Source: Solirubrobacteraceae bacterium (GTDB lineage Bacteria; Actinomycetota; Thermoleophilia; Solirubrobacterales; Solirubrobacteraceae). Taken from it: a stretch of 64,000 bases of DNA. This document shows, one piece after another, positions 50,374-63,874 of the stretch. Position numbers and translations under genes: made by a program. Position 1 is the first letter of the stretch. The number at the start of each line of letters is the position of its first letter. Under the pieces are notes generated by a model that worked only from the letters and a program-made list of their open reading frames with translations, was not told the origin of the DNA and made no database searches. Where the stretch lies: assembly GCA_024711025.1 (NCBI GenBank), contig JANJTP010000051.1, positions 1-64,000 of the forward strand, in the 5' to 3' direction.

Positions 50374-52143
50374 ATGCTCGAACCGCTGACGCTGCCGTTC
50401 TTCCAGCGCGCCCTCTGGGAGATCCTGCTGCTGGCGATCGTCTCGGGACTGCTCGGCACGTGGATCGTCCTGCGTGGCCTCGCCTTCTTCGCGCACGCCG
50501 TCGGGACGGCCACCTTCCCGGGCCTGGTGCTCGCGGACGGCCTCGGCTTCGCGCCGTTCCTCGGAGCGCTCGGGGCGGCTCTCGCGGTGGCCTGGCTCGT
50601 CGCAATGCTCGCCGAGCGACGAGCGACGAGCGCCGACAGCGTGACCGCGCTGGCGCTCGCGGCGGCGCTCGCCGTCGGGATCATCCTGGCCAGCGACGTG
50701 TTCGCCGCGCAGGCGAGCGTCGAGCGGCTGCTGTTCGGCAGCCTGCTCGCGATCGGCTGGTCCGACGTCGCGCTCGCGGCGGTGGTCGCGCTCGTCGCGC
50801 TCGTCGCCGCGCTGCTCGGCGGGCCTCGCTGGCTCGCCGCCGGCTTCGACGAGGTCGGCGACGCCGCGCGTCCGCGCCGCGGCGCAGGCCTCGCCCTTGT
50901 GCTGCTGACGGCGCTCGCCGCCGTCGCCGCGCTGTCGGCCGTCGGCGCCCTGCTCGCGACCGCGATCGTCGTCGTGCCGGCCGCGACCACGCGGCTCGTG
51001 ACGAACCGCGTCGCGAGCTGGCAGATCGCGACGGTCCTGCTCGCGGCGGCGCAGGGCGCGATCGGCATGTGGGTCGCCTTCCAGGTGAACGTCCCGCCCG
51101 GCGCCGCGATCGCCGTGCTGGCAGGCGCCGTCTTCCTGCTCGTCGCCGTCGTGCGCCGGATCGCGGCGAGCCGCTCGCGGGCATCCATGGCCTTGGCGGC
51201 GCTCGGCGGCGTGGCGGCCCTGGCGTTCGGCGGCTGCGCAGGCGGAAACGGGTCCACAGCCCGCAGTGGCCAGCTCGAGGTCGTCGCCACGACGACCATC
51301 GCCGGTGACCTCGCCGGGGAGGTCGGTGGCCGAGAGGTCGCCGTGACGACGCTGCTGCGCCCCGGCTCGGACCCGCACGAGTACGAGCCGCGAGCGGGGG
51401 ACGTGCGCAAGCTGGCGGGAGCCGACGTCGTCGTCGCGAGCGGCCTCGGGCTGGACGCCTGGGTCGACGAGCTGATCGGAGCGTCGGGCAGCGAGGCACG
51501 GGTCGTGCGGCTGGGTGACCACGTTCCGACGCGGCTCGAGGCCGCCGGCGGTCGTGGGGGGGAGGTGCATCACGGCGAGGGCGACGTCGACCCGCACTGG
51601 TGGGGCGACCCGCACAACGTGCTCGCGGCGGTCGGCGAGATCGAGCGCGCCTACGCGGCCGCCGATCCGCACGCCGCGGGGTCCGTGGCGAAGAACGCCG
51701 CCGCCTATCGACGGCGGCTGCGTGTCCTCGACCGCCGGATCGCCTCGTGCATCGCGCGCGTTCCGTGGGCTCAGCGGCGGATCGTCACCGATCACGACGC
51801 TTTCGCCTATTTCGCCACGCGCTACGGGATCGAGCTCGTCGGAGCGGTGATCCCCTCGACCACGACCCGTGCCGAGACCTCGGCCGGAGACCTGGCCGAG
51901 CTCGAGCGGACCATCAGGCGCGAGAAGGTCCGCGCGATCTTCCCGGAGGTGGGCGTGAGCCCGCGGCTCGCGGAGCAGCTCGCCCGGCAGACCGGTGCCT
52001 CGACGGCGTACACGCTCTACTCCGACGCCCTCGGCGGGCCGGGCTCGGGTGCCGACACCTACATCGGAGCCCAGCGGGCGAATGCCGCCGCACTGGTCGC
52101 GGGGATGAGCGGCGGGGCGAAGCGATGCGAGACGGGGGCATGA
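50374..52143 (+). CDS. Zinc/manganese ABC transporter: permease (ZnuB) fused to binding protein (ZnuA)
   Basis: 589 residues. Residues 1-268 are an ABC-3-type permease with about eight membrane segments (LGTWIVLRGLAFFAHAVGTA at the start). Residues 275-589 are a cluster 9 metal-binding protein: LEVVATTTIAGDLAGEVGG, RPGSDPHEYEP, a His-rich loop VHHGEGDVDPHWWGDPHNV, TDHDAFAYFATRYG and EVGVSPRLAEQLARQTGA. The ligand His, His, His and Asp are present. A lipobox-like AFGGC lies at the junction. ATG 51187 could allow separate translation of the second half, but no ribosome site is visible there. The stop overlaps the next gene (ATGA). Confidence 0.87.
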   Translation: MLEPLTLPFFQRALWEILLLAIVSGLLGTWIVLRGLAFFAHAVGTATFPGLVLADGLGFAPFLGALGAALAVAWLVAMLAERRATSADSVTALALAAALAVGIILASDVFAAQASVERLLFGSLLAIGWSDVALAAVVALVALVAALLGGPRWLAAGFDEVGDAARPRRGAGLALVLLTALAAVAALSAVGALLATAIVVVPAATTRLVTNRVASWQIATVLLAAAQGAIGMWVAFQVNVPPGAAIAVLAGAVFLLVAVVRRIAASRSRASMALAALGGVAALAFGGCAGGNGSTARSGQLEVVATTTIAGDLAGEVGGREVAVTTLLRPGSDPHEYEPRAGDVRKLAGADVVVASGLGLDAWVDELIGASGSEARVVRLGDHVPTRLEAAGGRGGEVHHGEGDVDPHWWGDPHNVLAAVGEIERAYAAADPHAAGSVAKNAAAYRRRLRVLDRRIASCIARVPWAQRRIVTDHDAFAYFATRYGIELVGAVIPSTTTRAETSAGDLAELERTIRREKVRAIFPEVGVSPRLAEQLARQTGASTAYTLYSDALGGPGSGADTYIGAQRANAAALVAGMSGGAKRCETGA

Positions 52144-52919
52144 GCGAGCCGCATGACGCGGACGCCTCGCGGCGGCCGCTGCTCGTCGTCGCCGACAGCC
52201 TCGCCGCGACCTACCCGGGCTCGGACGCGCCGGCGCTCGCCAGCGTGACCTTCGAGCTGCGGGGCGGGCAGCGGCTCGCCGTTCTCGGACCCAACGGCGG
52301 CGGCAAGTCGACCCTGCTGCGGGTGCTGTCCGGACAGCTCCAACCGTCGTTCGGCAAGCTCGAGCTGCCCGCCGGCCGTGTCGCGCTCGTGCCGCAGACC
52401 GAGCGCTCGAGGCTCGACTTCCCGGTCAGCGCGCTGGACGTGGCGACCCTCGGCGCCGTCGCGCGGCTGCCGTGGTACCGGCGTCCGTCACGCGCCGATC
52501 GTGCGCTCGCGCTCGACGCGCTGGGGCGCGTCGGGCTCGCCGACCGTGCGCACCGGACCTACGGCGACCTCTCCGGCGGGCAGCGACAGCGCGTGCTCGT
52601 CGCCCGCGCCCTCGTCCAGGACGCGCCCCTCCTGCTGCTCGACGAGCCGTTCTCCGGTCTGGACGCGCCGAGCAGGAGGCGGCTCGAGCTGCTGCTGGAG
52701 GAGCTGGCCGGAGCGGGGCGCGGCCTGCTGCTGGCGACGCACGACCTGGACCAGGCACGGGCCTGCGAGCTGGTCCTGTGCCTGAACCGCGTGCAGCTCG
52801 CCTTCGGGGAGCCGGAGCGGGCGCTCACGCCGCAGGTCGTCGAGCGCACCTACGGCGCGTGGCTCCATGGCACCGGCGACCCCGAGGAGCAGCCGGCCTC
52901 ACCGGGTCGGACACCTTGA
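52140..52919 (+). CDS. Zinc/manganese ABC transporter ATP-binding protein (ZnuC type)
   Basis: 259 residues. Walker A GPNGGGKSTLL, signature LSGGQRQRVLVARAL, Walker B LLLDEPFSGLD. The sequence around ALVPQTERSRLDFPVSALDV is typical of the metal-uptake group. It is translated together with the fused gene before it and the permease after it (TTGA). Confidence 0.92.
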   Translation: MSEPHDADASRRPLLVVADSLAATYPGSDAPALASVTFELRGGQRLAVLGPNGGGKSTLLRVLSGQLQPSFGKLELPAGRVALVPQTERSRLDFPVSALDVATLGAVARLPWYRRPSRADRALALDALGRVGLADRAHRTYGDLSGGQRQRVLVARALVQDAPLLLLDEPFSGLDAPSRRRLELLLEELAGAGRGLLLATHDLDQARACELVLCLNRVQLAFGEPERALTPQVVERTYGAWLHGTGDPEEQPASPGRTP

Positions 52920-53755
52920 TCGACTGGCTCGTCGAGCCGCTGCGCAGCACGGTCGTCGCGCGGGCGCTCGCCGAGCTCCTGCTGCTCGGCGTCGTCTCCG
53001 GATCGCTCGGGAGCTGGATCGTCCTGTGGCGCCTCTCGTACAGTGCTGAGTCGCTTGCGCACGGGATGCTGCCCGGCCTCGTGATCGCCGCGCTCGCGGG
53101 GGTCCCGCTGGTCATCGGCGGAGCGGCGGGGCTGCTCGTCGCGACGCTCGCGATCGCCGCCGTCGGCCGCGTCCCGCGGCTCGGCAGCGACGTCGCCGTC
53201 TCGGTGGTCATCACGACGCTGCTCGGTCTCGGCGTGCTGCTCGGACTGGCGCCCGAGACGCCGGCCGGACTCGACGGGATCCTGTTCGGCGACGTGCTGG
53301 GCGTCAGCGACGGCGACCTCGCGCTGACCGCGGCGATCGTCGCGGTCGTCCTCATCTCGCTGGCCTTGCTGCGCCCGAGCCTCGTCGTCGTCGGGCTCGA
53401 CCGGCTGAATGCCGCCGCGCTGGGCCGCCGGCCGGGCGCGGTCGACGTCGCGCTCGGCCTGCTGCTGGCGCTCGCGACGCTCGTCGCGGTCGAGGACCTC
53501 GGCAACCTGCTCGTCGTCGCGATGCTCGTCGGCCCGGCCGCCGCGGCGCGGCTGGTGACGCGGCGCCTGACGTCGATGATGCTCGCGGCGACGGCGATCG
53601 CCGTCGGCGCCTCGCTCGTCGGCATCTACGCCTCCTACCACGCGCGGCTCGCCGCGGGGGCGAGCGTCACCTGTGCGCTCGCGCTCGCCTACGTCGCCGC
53701 GCTCGCCGCACGTCGGCTGACCGCGGCACGGCGCTCGGCGTCGGCGCGCGCTTGA
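52916..53755 (+). CDS. Second metal ABC transporter permease (ZnuB type)
   Basis: 279 residues from a TTG overlapping the ATPase stop. About eight to nine membrane segments; GSLGSWIVLWRLSYSAESLAHG at the start and LLVVAMLVGPAAAARLV are characteristic. With the permease half of the fusion, the operon encodes two different permeases, suggesting a heterodimeric channel. Confidence 0.9.
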   Translation: MIDWLVEPLRSTVVARALAELLLLGVVSGSLGSWIVLWRLSYSAESLAHGMLPGLVIAALAGVPLVIGGAAGLLVATLAIAAVGRVPRLGSDVAVSVVITTLLGLGVLLGLAPETPAGLDGILFGDVLGVSDGDLALTAAIVAVVLISLALLRPSLVVVGLDRLNAAALGRRPGAVDVALGLLLALATLVAVEDLGNLLVVAMLVGPAAAARLVTRRLTSMMLAATAIAVGASLVGIYASYHARLAAGASVTCALALAYVAALAARRLTAARRSASARA

Positions 53756-53783: not shown

Positions 53784-54074
53784 TCATCGCGTGCAGCACG
53801 TCGTCTGCAGTCCGCCGGCCGAGCTCGCCGCCCACGCAGTGACACGATCGGGGGTCAGCGTCAGCAGCTCGAACAGCTCGCCGGGACTGAGCTCGCGCAC
53901 GCGCTCACCAGACGCGTGTCTGAGCGTGATCTCGACTCCGCGGAAGGCTGCGGCCCGCTGGAACGTGATCTGAAGCCCGAGCTGCTCGAGCAGGGTGGCG
54001 CAGCGAGCTGCGGCCTCCATGCTGGCGATCAGCTCGTGGGTCGGGCGATCGAGCTGCTGTGAAGTCGTAATCAT
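53784..54074 (-). CDS. Small protein of unknown function
   Basis: 96 residues, with a good GAGGAG site before ATG 54074. The sequence includes RPTHELIASMEAAARCATLL and ITLRHASGERVRELSPGELFELL. No family recognised. It could be cytoplasmic; there is no signal or membrane segment. It lies downstream of the EAL gene with a 193-bp gap in which I see no gene. Confidence 0.6.
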   Translation of the reverse strand: MITTSQQLDRPTHELIASMEAAARCATLLEQLGLQITFQRAAAFRGVEITLRHASGERVRELSPGELFELLTLTPDRVTAWAASSAGGLQTTCCTR

Positions 54075-54267: not shown

Positions 54268-56403
54268 TCAGCCGTCGAGCCGTTCGAGGAACGTCTCGGA
54301 GCACGCGGCCATCAGGCGGCGGAAGTCGCGAATCTCATCCTTCGAGGCGCGCGTGCGAATCAGCTCCGCGACGGATGCGTGCGCGAACTGGTCGAGGAAG
54401 CGCATGCACTCGGCCATCGTTGCCCCGGCCAGAACGCCTGTCAGGAGGTAATCGGCCGTTGCTCGGGCCGCGTCGCGGCTCGCGCCCGCGGCAAGCGCGG
54501 CGCAGACGGCATCGAGCCAATGCCTGGATCGCATGCGTGCCCGCGCCGTCGCGAACCAGCCTGGCCGCCAGGCCTCGTAGGTCGCCCTCGCGCCGTGCTC
54601 GACGAGGCTCGTCCCGCGCTCGGAAAGGACCTCCACCACCTCGGCCAGCGGCACCGCCGGCATCTCGACCGGGCGGAGGCGAACGATGCCGCGCTGCTGG
54701 CGGGCAAACCGCTGCAGGTCGATCCGGCGGAAGCGTCGGTGGCCGCCGGGCGTCCGCGAGCTCGGCAGCCGGCCCTCGTCGGCCAGGCGGCGGACTGTGC
54801 TGCTCGACACGTCGAGTGCCACTGCGGCCGCGCTGAGCGTCACCCACTCGTCGTCGGCTGCGTTGCGCTCTGTCGGAGCCGGGTTGCGTGCCGGCTGAAC
54901 ACGTGCCAGTCCAACCTGCTGAAGCTCGCGAAGCGCCGGCGCCGACGGGATCGGCGCGGGCCGCGCGATGCAGAAGCCCTGGACCGCGTCGACTCCGGCG
55001 CTGCGCACCGCCTCGAGCTGCGCCTCGGTCTCGATGCCTTCCGCGACCACCGTCAGACCGAGCGCTTGACCTATGCCGACGACGGCGTCGACGATCGGAA
55101 CCGGATCGTTCACCCGATGCACGCCGCGGACGAAGCCGCGGTCGATCTTGACGCTGTCGATCGGTAGGTCCGCGAGATGCGCGAGTGACGAGTACCCGGT
55201 GCCGAAGTCGTCCAGCACGACCTTCACGCCGAGTAGCTTGAGGGCATCGAGCGTCGCGATCGTCTCTCCGCAAGTGTCCATCACGCTCGACTCGGTGATC
55301 TCGAACGTGATCGATGACGGTGCCACATCGGTTGCGAGCAGGGCAGCGGCGACGCGACTGACGAACGCCCTCGACATGAGCTGTCGCTGTGAGACGTTGA
55401 TGGACACGCGCGGAAGCGCCAGCTCGGGATCCTGGATCGTCCAGCGAGCCACGCGACGGCAGACGTCGGCGATGACCCAGTCTCCGAGCTCGATGATCAG
55501 GTCACTTTCTTCCGCTATCGGGACGAACCGGCTCGGTGGCAGCATTCCGCGACTCGGATGGCGCCAGCGGACCAGCGCCTCGAACTCCGGGACGCCGGGT
55601 TGTCGCAGCGACATGATCGGCTGGAAGTGAAGGATGAGCTCCTCGCGCACAAGGGCGAGCCGTAGCTCCTCCTCGATCCGCAGGCGCTCTGCGACGCGCT
55701 CGCGTGCCGCGACGGTGAAGACCTCGGTGCGGTTGCCGCCAAGCGCCTTTGCGTGACGCAGCGCGCCCTCGGCGTCACGCAGCACGTCGGCCGCGCGGGT
55801 GTGACCATGATGCACCGTCGCGATCCCGACGCTGCCGGTGAGCAGAACCTGTTGCTCACCGATGATCAGCGGCAAGCGTATGACACGTAGCGCGTCTTCG
55901 GCGATCCTGAGTGCCTCGAGCTCGCTCGCAACACCTTCGCGGAGCACCACGAACTGCGTGCCCGCGAAGCGCGCGAGCACCGTGTCGGACGACGAGAGGA
56001 GCTCACATAATCTCCTGGCCACCTCTTGCAGTGCCTCGTCGCCACCATCGTGGCCGACCGTCATGTTGATGTCGTCGATGCCGGCGACGTCGATCGAGAG
56101 CACGGCGAGCACGGTGCCGGGCCCGCGGTCACGCGCGATCGTGCGCTCGAGGTATCTGACGAATGACGACCGACTCGGCAGTCCTGTGAGCGTGTCGATG
56201 CCCGCTGAGATCGACATCGGAGCTGGGACACCGTGATGCGAGGCGTTGCCCTCGACAAGCGTCGGTACCGGTGCCCGGTGCGGTGTCACCGTCGGGATGC
56301 CTAGTGACAGCTCTCTCACGGTGGGCTGCGGGCTCACGCGATCGAACGCTGATGACACTGATGCGCCTCGGGCGGGCTCGACGCATCCGAGACGGGCCTG
56401 CAT
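54268..56403 (-). CDS. Degenerate GGDEF - EAL phosphodiesterase fused to a MerR/excisionase-type DNA-binding domain
   Basis: 711 residues if started at ATG 56403; a TTG at 56502 and an ATG at 56217 are alternatives. Order of parts: disordered N-terminus (1-65); GGDEF domain with the active motif changed to FAGTQF (146-151); EAL domain with intact E275-A-L, ITESSVMD, DDFGTGYSSL, KIDRGFV and VAEGIET; a helix-turn-helix at about 519-567 (WVTLSAAAVALDVSSSTVRR and TPGGHRRFRRIDLQRF); and a helical C-terminal domain of about 135 residues with no known family. The EAL residues are complete, so c-di-GMP hydrolysis is expected, while the DNA-binding domain would tie it to transcription. Confidence 0.88.
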   Translation of the reverse strand: MQARLGCVEPARGASVSSAFDRVSPQPTVRELSLGIPTVTPHRAPVPTLVEGNASHHGVPAPMSISAGIDTLTGLPSRSSFVRYLERTIARDRGPGTVLAVLSIDVAGIDDINMTVGHDGGDEALQEVARRLCELLSSSDTVLARFAGTQFVVLREGVASELEALRIAEDALRVIRLPLIIGEQQVLLTGSVGIATVHHGHTRAADVLRDAEGALRHAKALGGNRTEVFTVAARERVAERLRIEEELRLALVREELILHFQPIMSLRQPGVPEFEALVRWRHPSRGMLPPSRFVPIAEESDLIIELGDWVIADVCRRVARWTIQDPELALPRVSINVSQRQLMSRAFVSRVAAALLATDVAPSSITFEITESSVMDTCGETIATLDALKLLGVKVVLDDFGTGYSSLAHLADLPIDSVKIDRGFVRGVHRVNDPVPIVDAVVGIGQALGLTVVAEGIETEAQLEAVRSAGVDAVQGFCIARPAPIPSAPALRELQQVGLARVQPARNPAPTERNAADDEWVTLSAAAVALDVSSSTVRRLADEGRLPSSRTPGGHRRFRRIDLQRFARQQRGIVRLRPVEMPAVPLAEVVEVLSERGTSLVEHGARATYEAWRPGWFATARARMRSRHWLDAVCAALAAGASRDAARATADYLLTGVLAGATMAECMRFLDQFAHASVAELIRTRASKDEIRDFRRLMAACSETFLERLDG

Positions 56404-56554: not shown

Positions 56555-56587
56555 TGAGAGGTTTATTGCCACCTATGAGAGGTTTTT
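56555..56587. repeat. TGAGAGGTTT direct repeats upstream of the EAL-HTH gene
   Basis: TGAGAGGTTT at 56555-56564 and 56576-56585, 21 bp apart (two helical turns), within an AT-richer part of the 346-bp gap 56404-56749. This gap holds no gene that I can support. Direct repeats are the binding mode of BldC-like excisionase-type HTH proteins. Confidence 0.6.
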
Positions 56588-56749: not shown

Positions 56750-57208
56750 CTAGGAGAGCGATCCGCGGCAGGCCGCGCAGGCGCCGCGCAAGACGATGTC
56801 GTGGCCGTGGACGTCGAAGTCCGCGCGGCGGGAGAGCGCATCGATCGCCCGCTCGAGCCCCGCGTCGTCGAACGGCACGACGGCGCCGCAGCGCTCGCAC
56901 ACGAGGTGATGGTGGTGGTGATCGGGTCGCGCCGGCTCGTAGCGTGCCTGGGACTGGCCGAGCTCGACCCGCGTCACGAGGCCGAGCTCGTCGAGCTCGT
57001 CCAGCACGCGGTAGACGCTCGCCCTCCCGACGGCACGGCCGCGCCCCCGCAGCGCCGCCTCGATCTCGTAGGCGGTGAGTGCGCACGGCTGCTCGTCGAG
57101 CAGGTCGAGGACGGCGGCACGCGCGCCGCCCAGCCGGTATCCGGCTGCGGCCAGCCGCTCCGCTGCGCGGCTCGCCCAGGAGCCGCCGGCATCCACCGGG
57201 TGGGCCAT
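56750..57208 (-). CDS. zur: Fur-family regulator, probably Zur
   Basis: 152 residues. The winged helix includes VLDLLDEQPCALTAYEIEAALRG and VGRASVYRVLDELDELGLVTRV. Metal sites: HHHHHLVCERCG, then a second pair CAACRG at the C-terminus, giving a structural zinc with four Cys; the regulatory site is His-rich. The neighbour is a His-rich protein, and a matching palindrome precedes the zinc operon, so zinc rather than iron is favoured. TACGGT eight bases before the ATG may be the -10 box. Confidence 0.86.
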   Translation of the reverse strand: MAHPVDAGGSWASRAAERLAAAGYRLGGARAAVLDLLDEQPCALTAYEIEAALRGRGRAVGRASVYRVLDELDELGLVTRVELGQSQARYEPARPDHHHHHLVCERCGAVVPFDDAGLERAIDALSRRADFDVHGHDIVLRGACAACRGSLS

Positions 57209-57238: not shown

Positions 57239-57592
57239 TCAGGCGAGGGAGAGCGGTCCGTGGTCGTCGCAGTGGTCGCCGTGCGCGTGGTGCAGGCGCC
57301 CGTCGACCAGGTAGTCGACGTGGCCGCCGTGGGGGACCTGCTCGTGCCCGCAGCCGGGTCCGTGGACATGCCCGGGCTCGTCGGCCACCCCATCCTGCGC
57401 GTCCCGGCAACCCTCGGGGTTCGTGGCATCGACGGCGATCACGTGATCGTCGACGTGATCGCCGTGCGCGTGGTGGAGATGGCCCGAGTGGAGGAAGTCG
57501 ATGTGTCCCGCGTGGACGACGGCGGTGTGGCCGCAGCCCGGTCCGTGGAGGTGCTCGTGGCCGCCGCCGTGGATCTCGTGCTCGTTCTCCAT
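57239..57592 (-). CDS. Histidine-rich protein with two metal-binding repeats
   Basis: 117 residues, start ATG 57592. Two copies of a unit of about 40 residues: HGPGCGHTAVVHAGHIDFL then SGHLHHAHGDHVDDH, and again HGPGCGHEQVPHGGHVDYL then DGRLHHAHGDHCDDH. About a quarter of the residues are His. It lies 30 bp ahead of zur in the same direction. A zinc buffer or chaperone is likely; no membrane segment or signal is seen. Confidence 0.8.
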   Translation of the reverse strand: MENEHEIHGGGHEHLHGPGCGHTAVVHAGHIDFLHSGHLHHAHGDHVDDHVIAVDATNPEGCRDAQDGVADEPGHVHGPGCGHEQVPHGGHVDYLVDGRLHHAHGDHCDDHGPLSLA

Positions 57593-59218: not shown

Positions 59219-60391
59219 TCAGCTCGGGAACAGGTGCCCGTGAACGGCCAGCAGCCCGCCGACGTCGTGCACGTCGCCGTCGAGCTCGGGGACGAGCACC
59301 GGCTCCTCGTCCCCCGTGGCGCGGCGCAGGCGCTCGATCGCCGCCGCGTCCCGCTCCGCGAGCGCGACTGCCTCCGCATACGTGCGCCCGACCTTCGCGG
59401 CCAGCCCCGCGCCCAGCTCGGGGCCGAGCTCGGCGACCACCGCCTCCGGATCCGGCAGCGGCTCGAAGCCGCGGTCGAGCCGGTTGACGCGGTTCACGAT
59501 CAGACCGCCGAACGGCATCCGCGACTCGCGCAGCTTCTCGCGGAAGAAGATCGCCTCCTCGACCGGCTCGCGCTCCGGGCTCGTCACCACGAGGAACGTC
59601 GTCGCCGGGTCGGCGAGCAGCCTTCGAACCCCCTCGGCGCGCTCGCGAAAGCCTTCCATCAGGCCGCCGAGCGCGCGCAGGAAGACGCTGACGTCCTGTA
59701 GGAGGTCCACGCCGGTGAGCCGCTCGAGCACCCCGAACACGACCCCCGTCCCGCGCCCCACGACGCGTGCCGCCAGGCCGCTGGGGGTGAGGAGCATCCG
59801 CAGCGCGCGGCCCTCGAGGAAGCCGGTCAGCCGGTCCGGCGCGTCGAGGAAGTCGAGCGCGTTGCGCGACGGAGGGGTATCGAGCACGAGCACGTCGAAG
59901 CGGCCCGATGCGTTCAGCTCGTAGAGCTTGGCGACCGCCGTGAACTCCTGCGAGCCGGCGACGGCGCCCGAGAGCTGCTGGTAGATGCGGTTCGACAGCA
60001 CCTCCTCACGGGAGCGCCGGTCGGGTGCGAGCCGCTCGATCAGCTCGTCGAACGTGCGCTTCGGATCCAGGGTCATCGCCCACAGCTCGCCCTCGAGCCC
60101 CAGGCCGGCGCTCGCGAAGCGGGCGGGATCGACCCGCTCGGGGTCGCCGGCGAGCTCGTCGAGGCCGAGCGCGTCCGCCAGCCGGCGCGCGGGGTCGATC
60201 GTCACCACAGCGACGCGCGCGCCGCGCGCCGCCAGGCCCGTCGCGATCGCGGCGGAGGTCGTCGTCTTGCCGACGCCCCCCGAGCCCGCGCAGATCACAA
60301 CGCGCGAGCCGCTCAGCCGCGTCGCGAGGCCCGCACCGCCGCTAGGCCGCTCGTGCGGCGACACGGGGGACCGCTCGCGGGGCCCGCTCAA
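59219..60391 (-). CDS. ArsA/Get3-like ATPase, second of a coupled pair
   Basis: 390 residues from a TTG at 60391 that overlaps the stop of the upstream ATPase (TTGA). P-loop CAGSGGVGKTTTSAA, switch I TIDPARRLADAL, switch II VLDTPPSRNALDFLD. The central stretch is long and hydrophobic/helical (GFLEGRALRMLLTPSGLAARV), as in the client-binding part of Get3. Actinobacteria usually carry two such ATPases side by side. Arsenite pumps are not present here, so arsenic resistance is unlikely. Confidence 0.87.
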   Translation of the reverse strand: MSGPRERSPVSPHERPSGGAGLATRLSGSRVVICAGSGGVGKTTTSAAIATGLAARGARVAVVTIDPARRLADALGLDELAGDPERVDPARFASAGLGLEGELWAMTLDPKRTFDELIERLAPDRRSREEVLSNRIYQQLSGAVAGSQEFTAVAKLYELNASGRFDVLVLDTPPSRNALDFLDAPDRLTGFLEGRALRMLLTPSGLAARVVGRGTGVVFGVLERLTGVDLLQDVSVFLRALGGLMEGFRERAEGVRRLLADPATTFLVVTSPEREPVEEAIFFREKLRESRMPFGGLIVNRVNRLDRGFEPLPDPEAVVAELGPELGAGLAAKVGRTYAEAVALAERDAAAIERLRRATGDEEPVLVPELDGDVHDVGGLLAVHGHLFPS

Positions 60392-61332
60392 AGCACTCGC
60401 TCCAGCTCGCCGGAGAGCGTGCGTATCGCGTGCGCGTCGAGCGCCGGGTGAAGCAGCTCTCGCATCGAGACGACCGGGCAGTCGAGCCCGCGCCGAAGCC
60501 GGGCGAGCTGCGCGCGCTCGGCCTTCGCCCGGCGATGGCGGCGCAGCGCGGCATCGACGGCGATCGACGAGGCGCCGCCGACATGCGCCGCATGCGTCGC
60601 CAGCGCCCGCGCCTCCGCCGCGCTCAGGCGGCTCGGCAGGAGCCGGTTGACGACCGCCAGCGACACCGGCAGGCCGATCGCGTCGCGCAGCTCCCGCCGG
60701 AGCTGGAGCGTCTCGTTGACCGGCATCTCCTCGGGGCGTGCCACGGCGACGACCGCGGTCCGCTCAGGGTCGCTGACGAGCGCGTCGATCCTGCTCGCCT
60801 GGCGCGCGACCCGGCCCACCCTCGCCGCCTGCGCGAACGTGCGCGGGGCGCTCAGCACCGCGACGCCGTGGCCGGTCGCCGGGGCGTCGAGGATCACCAG
60901 GTCGTACGGCTCGGCGCCGGCGGTGCGCCGATCCTCCTGAGCCAGCTCCCAGACCTTGCCGATCGTCAGCAGCTCGCGCATCCCGGGCGTCGCCGCCGTC
61001 AGGTAGGCGAACGTCCGGCTGTGGCCGAGCAGCGCGGCCAGGCTCCGCGACGGGAGCTGGTCCAGCAGGTACTCGCGCATCGCCGCCTCGGGGTCGACCG
61101 ACGTGTGGTGGACGCCCCAGGCCAGCTCGACCTCGCGATCGCGCAGGGCCTCCTCGCCGCCCAGCGCGCGCGAGACGTCGTCGCGCGTCGCGACCTCGAC
61201 GACGATCGCACGCAGGCCGCGCCGCGCCGCGGCGACCGCCAGCGCCGCGGCGACCGTCGACTTCCCCGCGCCGCCCTTGCCGGTCACGACGACCAGCTCG
61301 CGGTCGAGCAGCGCCGCCGCTCGCGCGCTCAG
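60388..61332 (-). CDS. ArsA-like ATPase, first of a coupled pair, CTG start
   Basis: 314 residues. P-loop VVTGKGGAGKSTVAAAL starts at about residue 16, so no missing N-terminus is allowed downstream; ILDAPATGHG is switch II. No ATG, GTG or TTG occurs in frame between the antisense parA region and the P-loop, other than the GTG of VVVTGKGG itself, which would delete the first strand. A CTG at 61332 is exactly seven bases after GGAGG (61344-61340). This is the best start. Confidence 0.85.
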   Translation of the reverse strand: MSARAAALLDRELVVVTGKGGAGKSTVAAALAVAAARRGLRAIVVEVATRDDVSRALGGEEALRDREVELAWGVHHTSVDPEAAMREYLLDQLPSRSLAALLGHSRTFAYLTAATPGMRELLTIGKVWELAQEDRRTAGAEPYDLVILDAPATGHGVAVLSAPRTFAQAARVGRVARQASRIDALVSDPERTAVVAVARPEEMPVNETLQLRRELRDAIGLPVSLAVVNRLLPSRLSAAEARALATHAAHVGGASSIAVDAALRRHRRAKAERAQLARLRRGLDCPVVSMRELLHPALDAHAIRTLSGELERVL

Positions 61333-61406
61333 GGCCGGTCCTCCAGGACCCTCACCCCGGCAGCCTTCGGCGCTCGATCGAGCTCGCCCCTCGAAACACG
61401 CCCGAG

Positions 61407-61412
61407 ACCCTA
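61407..61412 (-). promoter_or_regulatory. -10 box of the ArsA pair
   Basis: TAGGGT on the minus strand, about 75 bases before the CTG start. Confidence 0.35.
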
Positions 61413-61515
61413 CCCCTGCGCGGGGCCGCGGCCGGCGGGCCCGCGGATGGAGGAATCGGCGAAGGCCCTGCGAATACCCCCCAGGTACGGGCCTCATCGA
61501 CCCCGGAGCACCCCT

Positions 61516-62289
61516 GTGGACAGCCAGAGCAAGGCCAAGGTCATCGCGTTCGCCAACCAGAAGGGCGGCGTCGCCAAGACGACCACGACCCTCAACCTCG
61601 CCGTGGCCTTCCACGAGACGGGTCATCGCGTGCTCTGCGTGGACATGGATCCCCAGGGCAATCTGACGATGTCGCAGGGGATCGACCCCGACACGCTCGA
61701 GGAGTCGATGTACGACGTGCTCGTGCACCGGATGCCGATCCGCCAGGTAATCCGCAAGCGCGAGATCGACGTCGCCTGCGCGTCGATCGACCTCGCCGGC
61801 GCAGAGATCGCGATGTCGGCGATGATCGGCCGCGAGCGCACGCTGCAGAAGGCGATCGCGACGGTTGCCGACGACTACGACTTCGTCTGCATCGACACGC
61901 CGCCCAGCCTCGGGCTGCTGACGATCAACGCCCTGACGGCCGCCGACAAGGTCATCGTCCCCGTGCAGTGCGAGTATCTGTCCATGCGCGGTCTGATCCA
62001 GCTGCAGAACACGCTGCAGATGATCCGTGAGAACCTCAATCCGGACGTCGACATCGAGGGCATCCTGCCGACGCTCATGGACACGAGGACGGTCCACGCG
62101 AAGGAGGCGATCGAGATCCTCGAGGAGAACTTCGGGGACCGCGTGTTCGCCTCGCGCATCAAGAAGACCATCAGGTTCGCCGAGGCGCCCGTGAAGGGGA
62201 TGTCGGTCCTGAAGTACGACCCCGACGGCGTCGCCGCCCAGTCCTATCGCGACCTCGCGAAGGAGGTTCTCGCCAATGGCAGCCGGTAA
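61516..62289 (+). CDS. ParA-family ATPase (Soj/MinD type)
   Basis: 257 residues from a GTG preceded by GGAG. Deviant Walker [15 protein letters not shown] at 16-29, [15 protein letters not shown], and [15 protein letters not shown]. It looks like a chromosomal or mid-cell positioning ATPase. No parB follows; instead the gene overlaps an ftsZ by 14 bases, which suggests coordination with division. Confidence 0.9.
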
Positions 62290-63874
62290 GCGCGACCGCG
62301 CGAGCATGCGGGAAGGCCCCCTGGCCGAGCTCTTCCGCCGCACGGAGTCCGGCGCGTCCCGCGCCGACGATCCCGCGCACGCGGAGCCCGCCGACGAGGC
62401 TCCACGCGAGTCGGACGGGCAGGGCGAGGAGACCGCCGTCGTGAGCGACGGGTTGACGTCCGCCGAGCCCGAGGGCGGCTCGACCGCCGAGCGCGACGGC
62501 AAGCCCGCCGCCGCGCCGGCGACGGTCGCCGGTCGTGAGCACTACCCCCACCCGGGCCTCGGCGCCCCCGCGCCGCCGCCCGAGCCCGAGCGCCACACGC
62601 CCACCCCGCAGGAGCGCCTGCGCAGCGCGTTCAGCTCCGACATCCCCGAGAACATCCTCGAGCGCCCGCCGGGGGCTCCGGTCGCGCCGAATCGCCTCAT
62701 GCCGCCGGCACCCGCGCCGCGCGAGCCGATGCCCGGCGGCTACGACCAGAACCCGTGGGCGGCGCAGCCGAGCGGCTCGCCTCTGATCCGCGTCATCGGA
62801 GTCGGCGGCGCCGGGGTCAACGCCGTCGACCGGATGGTCGAGGCCGGCGTCGCGGGCGTCGAGTTCATCGCCGTCAACACCGACATGCAGTCCCTGCAGC
62901 AGTCGGAGGCCGACGTCACGATCCACATCGGCGAAGGGCTGACCCGCGGCCTCGGGGCCGGCGCCAACCCGGAGCTGGGACGCGCCGCCGCCATGGAGGA
63001 CTACGACCGCCTCAAGCACCACATCAAGGGCAGCGACATGGTGTTCATCACCGCCGGCGCCGGCGGCGGCACCGGTACCGGCGCGGCGCCGATCGTCGCG
63101 CGCATCGCCCGTGAGATCGACGCGCTCACCGTCGGCATCGTCACGAGGCCCTTCGGCTTCGAGGGCACGCGCCGCGCGTCTGCCGCCGACGTCGGCATCG
63201 ACGCGCTCGGCGGCGAGGTCGACACGCTGATCGTCGTCCCCAACAACCGGCTGCTCAGCGTGCTCGACCAGCGCACGTCGATGGTCGAGGCGTTCCGCGT
63301 CGCCGACGACGTGCTGCGCCAGGGCGTCCAGGGCATCAGCGACCTCGTCACGCTCCCCGGGATCATCAACCTCGACTTCGCCGACGTCCGCACGATCATG
63401 TCCGACGCCGGCCCGGCGCTGCTCGGGATCGGCATGGGCACCGGTGAGAACCGCGCGCTCCAGGCCGCCGAGCAGGCCGTCTCGTCGCCGCTGCTCGAGA
63501 CGAGCATGGAGGGCGCCCGCTCGATCCTCCTGTCGATCACCGGCAGCCACGACCTCTCGCTGTGGGAGGTCAACGAGGCCGCCAAGGCCGTCAGCGCCGC
63601 CGCGTCGCCCGACGCGAACATCATCTTCGGCGCGATGGTCGACGAGACGCTCGAGGACCAGGTCTGGGTGACCGTCGTCGCGACCCGCTACGGCGAGTCC
63701 CGGACCCGGTCCCGCCGACGGATCGAGGAGCCCGTCGGCGAGCCGCGCATCGAGCGGCGCGACCGGCGCGACCCGCGCGGCATGAGCACCGTTCGCACCG
63801 GCACCGGGGTCACGGAGCTCGACGTTCCCGAGTTCGTCCCGCGCCTGGGCCTGGGCGGATCTCGCGGCGCCTGA
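62276..63874 (+). CDS. ftsZ: FtsZ with a 165-residue N-terminal extension
   Basis: 532 residues. The tubulin-like core runs from about residue 169 ([17 protein letters not shown]). The GTP signature [10 protein letters not shown] is at 263-272 and the T7 loop [11 protein letters not shown] is present, so polymerisation and GTP hydrolysis are expected. It ends with [10 protein letters not shown], like the usual C-terminal peptide. The extension is Pro/Glu/Ala-rich, with [18 protein letters not shown] near the start and [19 protein letters not shown] before the core. The gene starts inside parA. The usual dcw neighbours are absent. Confidence 0.92.

What the first reader, a model, noticed from the sequence alone, without database searches (positions are those of the whole stretch)
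54268..56403. c-di-GMP phosphodiesterase fused to a DNA-binding domain and an unknown helical domain
The EAL part keeps its catalytic motifs, the GGDEF part is degenerate (FAGTQF), and a MerR/excisionase-type HTH follows with TPGGHRRF. A 135-residue C-terminal domain has no family that I recognise. Direct coupling of c-di-GMP turnover to a DNA-binding module in one chain is rare; it could be a trigger-enzyme transcription factor.
Basis: partly seen in the sequence, partly recalled or inferred. Interest (0 to 1): 0.75.

Follow-up and report, generated by a model that had tools for sequence, protein, structure and literature searches.

The report
Signal-degrading enzyme fused to gene regulator
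This soil actinobacterium makes one protein that joins an enzyme destroying the bacterial messenger c-di-GMP to a DNA-binding part and a haemless globin-like part; relatives show the trio is a real family limited to one bacterial group, so it probably works as a gene switch read out directly from messenger breakdown.

Summary
Observation confirmed: one minus-strand ORF (54268-56403) encodes a degenerate GGDEF, an EAL with all 12 checked active-site residues, a BldC/MerR-type winged HTH and a C-terminal domain without a Pfam family. I identify that domain as a globin-like fold (AF2 pLDDT 96; globin-coupled sensors, RsbR and phycobilin globins fill the match list) without a conserved haem histidine or bilin motif. 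It defines a family: 28 distinct proteins, all in the window's own family (Solirubrobacter/Conexibacter; 19 of 146 genomes). Of these, 13 are GGDEF-EAL+HTH+globin, 11 HD-GYP+HTH+globin, 3 EAL+globin, and 1 PAS+HTH+globin lying beside c-di-GMP genes. The same HTH-globin module is thus joined to two unrelated kinds of c-di-GMP phosphodiesterase, never to a cyclase alone, and the HTH is the best-conserved domain. Best reading: a single-chain trigger phosphodiesterase / c-di-GMP-gated DNA-binding protein, functionally like E. coli PdeL or the PdeR-MlrA switch, with other parts and a possible second, globin-borne input. DNA binding, hydrolysis and their coupling are inferred, not shown. Real, not an error; new variant of a known kind. 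The readable literature does not describe this architecture; the photoglobin paper was not available.

The parts
54268..56403 (-). whole gene: degenerate GGDEF - EAL - BldC/MerR-type wHTH - globin-like domain (711 aa; start codon uncertain, ATG 56403 or ATG ~56217; ORF open to TTG 56502)
55729..56202 (-). degenerate GGDEF domain (FAGTQF at the active site, SSSD at the I-site position)
   Evidence: (Pfam PF00990, E 4e-28), sequence
54958..55671 (-). EAL phosphodiesterase domain, catalytic set complete
   Evidence: PF00563, E 6e-73; 12 of 12 positions
54691..54846 (-). winged helix-turn-helix, HTH_17 / BldC-MerR type, RTPGGHRRF wing
   Evidence: PF12728, E 1e-11; BldC 6amk/6ama, 8jbs; 6ama Z 9.8 over 54 residues
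54271..54675 (-). C-terminal globin-like domain, five helices, no conserved His, no bilin CXRD/CXQD motif; member of a family of 28 proteins
   Evidence: fold; family, motifs
56555..56585 (-). upstream direct repeat AAACCTCTCA-N11-AAACCTCTCA, candidate operator (weak lead: unique in the genome, but a 10-mer repeat occurs in 11.5% of shuffles and none was found upstream of two orthologues)
53784..54074 (-). 96-aa ORF of unknown family just downstream; homologues lie just upstream of the orthologous PDE genes in L050 and L051

Best explanation
A single-chain c-di-GMP trigger phosphodiesterase. The BldC/MerR-type wHTH, paired with a haemless globin-like domain, binds DNA; the GGDEF-EAL part binds and hydrolyses c-di-GMP. 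Substrate occupancy or turnover changes the oligomeric state of the EAL part and so the DNA binding of the HTH-globin part, so that the protein reads the c-di-GMP level while lowering it. The globin-like domain either holds the HTHs in the right dimer or adds a second, unknown input. Shown: domain content, intact EAL active site, BldC-like DNA-contact residues, globin-like fold (prediction), a conserved family, exchange of EAL for HD-GYP. Inferred: DNA binding, hydrolysis, coupling and its sign, target genes.
For: Domains. EAL active site complete here and in 13 of 16 EAL members; HD-GYP motifs complete in 11 of 11. The same HTH-globin module is joined to GGDEF-EAL (13) or HD-GYP (11), the globin alone to EAL (3), never to a cyclase alone; HD-GYP members form one clade (93/91) among EAL members, so the phosphodiesterase was replaced by an unrelated one while HTH-globin stayed. 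The one member without a PDE (L028) is flanked by GGDEF, PAS-GGDEF and HD-GYP genes, and four members have a related PAS-EAL/EAL gene nearby. HTH is the most conserved domain (74% to L050, against EAL 65%, GGDEF 46%, globin 41%) and stays so (70%) in L135, whose EAL is degenerate. BldC residues Thr27, Arg30, His46, Arg47, Arg48 that touch DNA are kept (PMC5859096). Precedent: PdeL and PdeR-MlrA (PMC5052742); the EAL of PdeR/YciR contacts the CTD of MerR-like MlrA, and the EAL protein BluF antagonises MerR-like BluR (PMC3509220).
Against: No biochemical evidence. BldC Lys26, Thr29, Trp31 and Lys33 are replaced here (S, R, L, D), so specificity or affinity may differ. Three EAL members have broken active sites and three lack the HTH, so neither half is indispensable in every member. 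No conserved operator was found. The gene is compositionally atypical and alone in its genus, so it may be a recent import without settled targets.
Confidence: 0.55

Rival explanations
1. Signal flow is reversed: the globin-like domain (with the HTH as a scaffold) is a sensory input that controls the phosphodiesterase, as globin domains control diguanylate cyclases in globin-coupled sensors. DNA binding is secondary.
For: Three family members are EAL plus globin without any HTH; best structural matches are globin-coupled sensors of c-di-GMP enzymes, BpeGReg and DosC.
Against: The HTH-less form is one clade of three; in 25 of 28 the HTH is present and, in the relatives compared, it is the best conserved domain; no haem-ligating His.
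Confidence: 0.22
2. DNA tether: the HTH-globin part parks an ordinary phosphodiesterase on the nucleoid or at one promoter, where it depletes c-di-GMP locally for another effector; its DNA binding is not gated by c-di-GMP.
For: Same domain facts; local c-di-GMP signalling is described for E. coli (PMC5052742); a swap of EAL for HD-GYP needs only catalysis, not a conserved interface.
Against: Three members keep HTH-globin with a degenerate EAL, which a catalytic tether would not explain.
Confidence: 0.18
3. Artefact: a frameshift, misassembly or chance read-through joins two genes.
For: None found; one relative (L028) has HTH-globin without a PDE.
Against: Same order in 23 other distinct proteins of several genera, no stop inside.
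Confidence: 0.01

Closest known systems
PdeL (YahA), E. coli LuxR-type HTH + EAL trigger phosphodiesterase
   Same: EAL phosphodiesterase and HTH in one chain; c-di-GMP reported to tune its DNA-dependent output (PMC5052742)
   Different: PdeL has an N-terminal LuxR-type HTH, no GGDEF and no globin; here a C-terminal BldC/MerR-type wHTH, GGDEF and globin-like domain
PdeR-DgcM-MlrA (and BluF-BluR) of E. coli
   Same: GGDEF-EAL protein controlling a MerR-like regulator; EAL touches the regulator's C-terminal domain (PMC3509220)
   Different: two or three separate proteins; MlrA's C-terminal domain was not compared here; in this family the two halves are one chain
BldC family wHTH (Streptomyces)
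   Same: among the closest solved HTHs by sequence and fold; Arg30 and the His-Arg-Arg wing kept
   Different: BldC is a lone 68-residue wHTH; here fused to enzyme and globin
Non-haem sensor globins: RsbR N-terminal domain, pXO1-118/pXO2-61, photoglobin/photocobilin
   Same: globin-like fold, no conserved haem ligand; sensory context (PMC10979010, PMC10151467)
   Different: no significant sequence match found; no CXRD/CXQD bilin motif; no B12 domain in the proteins scanned
Stand-alone HTH + helical regulators of Chloroflexota (L060-L129)
   Same: same BldC-type HTH followed by a domain also predicted globin-like
   Different: no enzyme domain; CTD sequence similarity not significant on its own (hhalign probability 1.9%)

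Membership tests
EAL c-di-GMP phosphodiesterase | EAL fold with metal and substrate residues | tested here: met
   Pfam E 6e-73; 12 of 12 positions canonical
EAL c-di-GMP phosphodiesterase | hydrolyses c-di-GMP | not testable with these tools
   needs an assay
Active GGDEF diguanylate cyclase | GG(D/E)EF active-site motif | tested here: not met
   FAGTQF instead; some other members keep GGDEF
MerR/BldC-type wHTH | HTH plus RTxGGHRR wing, family profile match | tested here: met
   HTH_17 45.4 bits over cut-off 27; BldC
MerR/BldC-type wHTH | binds DNA | not testable with these tools
   contact residues partly kept: T27, R30, H46, R47, R48
Trigger phosphodiesterase (PdeR/PdeL kind) | active PDE that also binds a macromolecular target and whose effect on the target depends on c-di-GMP | not testable with these tools
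   architecture only (definition PMC5052742)
Globin-like fold | globin helix arrangement | tested here: met
   AF2 pLDDT 96.1; 4uiq Z 11.8 over 133 residues, most of the list globins/phycobiliproteins; a prediction, and Z under 13 alone would not be decisive for helical bundles
Haem globin / globin-coupled sensor | conserved proximal His | tested here: not met
   no His column above 15 of 28; the window residue there is Met
Bilin globins (phycobiliprotein CXRD, photoglobin CXQD) | CX(R/Q)D motif | tested here: not met
   0 of 28 members (motifs from PMC10151467). Non-covalent bilin binding is not excluded
RsbR/RsbRD N-terminal family | profile match | tested here: inconclusive
   no Pfam match to it in any of 28 members, but fold match 2bnl Z 10.4

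The most novel reading that the evidence does not exclude
A lineage-specific class of one-chain c-di-GMP switches in which a BldC-type HTH and a new non-haem globin sensor form a portable module that works with either EAL or HD-GYP phosphodiesterases, integrating a second, unknown ligand with c-di-GMP at the promoter.
Probability: 0.35. Interest if true: 0.78.

Novelty: new variant of a known kind. Interest (0 to 1): 0.56.

Why it matters
Trigger phosphodiesterases were defined on two E. coli proteins (PMC5052742). A family that repeats the idea in another phylum, with a different DNA-binding domain, a haemless globin-like domain and an EAL-to-HD-GYP exchange, would show that coupling c-di-GMP breakdown to DNA binding is a recurrent design, and gives small single-chain proteins (390-460 aa HD-GYP members, some from cultured Solirubrobacter) in which the coupling can be tested directly.

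Tried and rejected
Pfam and PDB sequence profiles for the C-terminal domain, and NCBIfam on the whole protein: nothing significant for that domain. CTD of Chloroflexota regulators against this CTD by hhalign: not significant without the HTH. RsbRD_N search in 21 genomes: one match elsewhere, no link. B12-binding search: too unspecific to find photocobilin-like relatives. Photoglobin paper PMC8717448 not held, so a prior description of HTH-globin fusions cannot be excluded. Operator: the direct repeat upstream is within reach of chance and was not found in two orthologues. EAL-domain tree: number of fusion events unresolved. Photocobilin 8j2x matches the fold (Z 10.9) but a residue-level comparison of the bilin pocket could not be made. 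First-look candidates per genome were capped (10 or 28), so divergent members may be missed.

Full report
Observation. The minus-strand ORF 54268-56403 reads without stops as 711 residues, or 744 from a TTG. Pfam finds GGDEF, EAL and HTH_17 in this order, each above its cut-off, and nothing in the last ~140 residues. FAGTQF replaces GGDEF; the inhibitory-site position reads SSSD instead of RxxD (sequence). The EAL domain keeps all 12 positions checked. The closest solved GGDEF-EAL pairs are proteins such as the Pseudomonas 'Motility regulator' and DosP.

The fusion is real. A profile of the C-terminal domain found 28 distinct proteins. All lie in the window genome's own family, 19 of 146 genomes; named ones are Solirubrobacter, Conexibacter and related MAGs. 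Searches of 399 class and 396 phylum genomes gave only weak partial matches outside that family, with the limit that few candidates per genome were scored. Architectures (Pfam for 21 proteins, motifs for the rest): 13 GGDEF-EAL-HTH-CTD, often with PAS or GAF in front; 11 HD-GYP-HTH-CTD; 3 EAL-CTD without HTH; 1 PAS-HTH-CTD.

The unknown domain. AlphaFold2 on a 28-row alignment gives pLDDT 96.1 and five helices in the domain. Foldseek's own E-values are weak (best 0.013), but VIA-align places globin-coupled sensors (4uiq Z 11.8, 3.1 A over 133 residues; DosC 10.5), phycobilin globins (4xxk 11.6), photocobilin (8j2x 10.9) and RsbR (2bnl 10.4) at the top, nearly all one superfamily. I conclude a globin-like fold. 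No His column is conserved and no CXRD/CXQD motif occurs, so it is not a canonical haem or covalent bilin globin. Invariant are P10, W57, E93, nearly so Y37 and G43 (numbering of the first row of A4). Stand-alone regulators of Chloroflexota have the same kind of HTH and a domain that is also predicted globin-like (pXO2-61 Z 14.4), though sequence similarity of the two globin-like parts is not significant.

Why c-di-GMP and DNA belong together. HD-GYP and EAL are unrelated folds with the same substrate (general knowledge). In the HTH-globin tree HD-GYP members form one clade (93/91) among EAL members: the enzyme was exchanged, the partner kept. No member carries a cyclase alone. HD-GYP motifs are complete in 11 of 11, EAL residues in 13 of 16. 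The HTH is the most conserved domain between the window protein and the relatives compared, even where the EAL is degenerate (L135). Four members have a PAS-EAL or EAL gene nearby.

Mechanism. PdeL and PdeR of E. coli are active phosphodiesterases whose binding and cleavage of c-di-GMP sets a transcriptional target (PMC5052742). The PdeR EAL domain contacts the C-terminal domain of the MerR-like MlrA, and BluF (EAL) antagonises the MerR-like BluR (PMC3509220). The window protein carries analogous halves in one chain. I infer c-di-GMP-gated DNA binding (0.55). The rivals are globin input to the enzyme (0.22) and a DNA tether (0.18). The sign of the effect and the targets are unknown.

Context. 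The gene lies between zinc-uptake type genes (ABC-3, ZnuA-like) and a Fur-family regulator; no neighbour other than the small ORF was found to be shared with relatives. It is poorer in G+C (0.683 against 0.726; GC3 0.82 against 0.86-0.94) and alone among 17 genomes of its genus, many of them incomplete, which suggests acquisition from a relative (inference). Upstream a 10-bp direct repeat at 21 bp is a weak operator candidate. A 96-aa ORF next to the gene has homologues beside the orthologues in L050 and L051.

Verdict. Real, conserved, of moderate to high interest; a new variant of the trigger-phosphodiesterase kind rather than a new kind of system.

Noticed in passing
window 53784-54074 (-): 96-aa ORF without Pfam match, homologous to small ORFs just upstream of the PDE orthologues in L050 (45%) and L051 (50%): a linked small gene whose order changed, possible partner.
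   Followed up: partly
L058, L132, L133, L137: HTH-globin phosphodiesterase genes have a related PAS-EAL or EAL gene nearby, and a GGDEF or EAL-GGDEF gene in L132 and L058.
   Followed up: partly
L060-L129 (Chloroflexota and others): Stand-alone ~225-aa regulators with the RTPGGHRRF HTH and a predicted globin-like domain; five loci have a GGDEF-HD-GYP gene nearby.
   Followed up: partly
L135, L136, L137: Family members with degenerate EAL active sites but a retained HTH and globin-like domain.
   Followed up: partly
window 50374-53752 (+) and 56753-57208 (-): Zinc-uptake type genes (ABC-3, ZnuA fused to ABC-3) and a Fur-family regulator flank the gene; a His-rich reading frame lies beyond the regulator, around 57250-57500 (-).
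   Followed up: no
window 59222-62502 (-): Two adjacent genes with ArsA-type ATPase matches.
   Followed up: no
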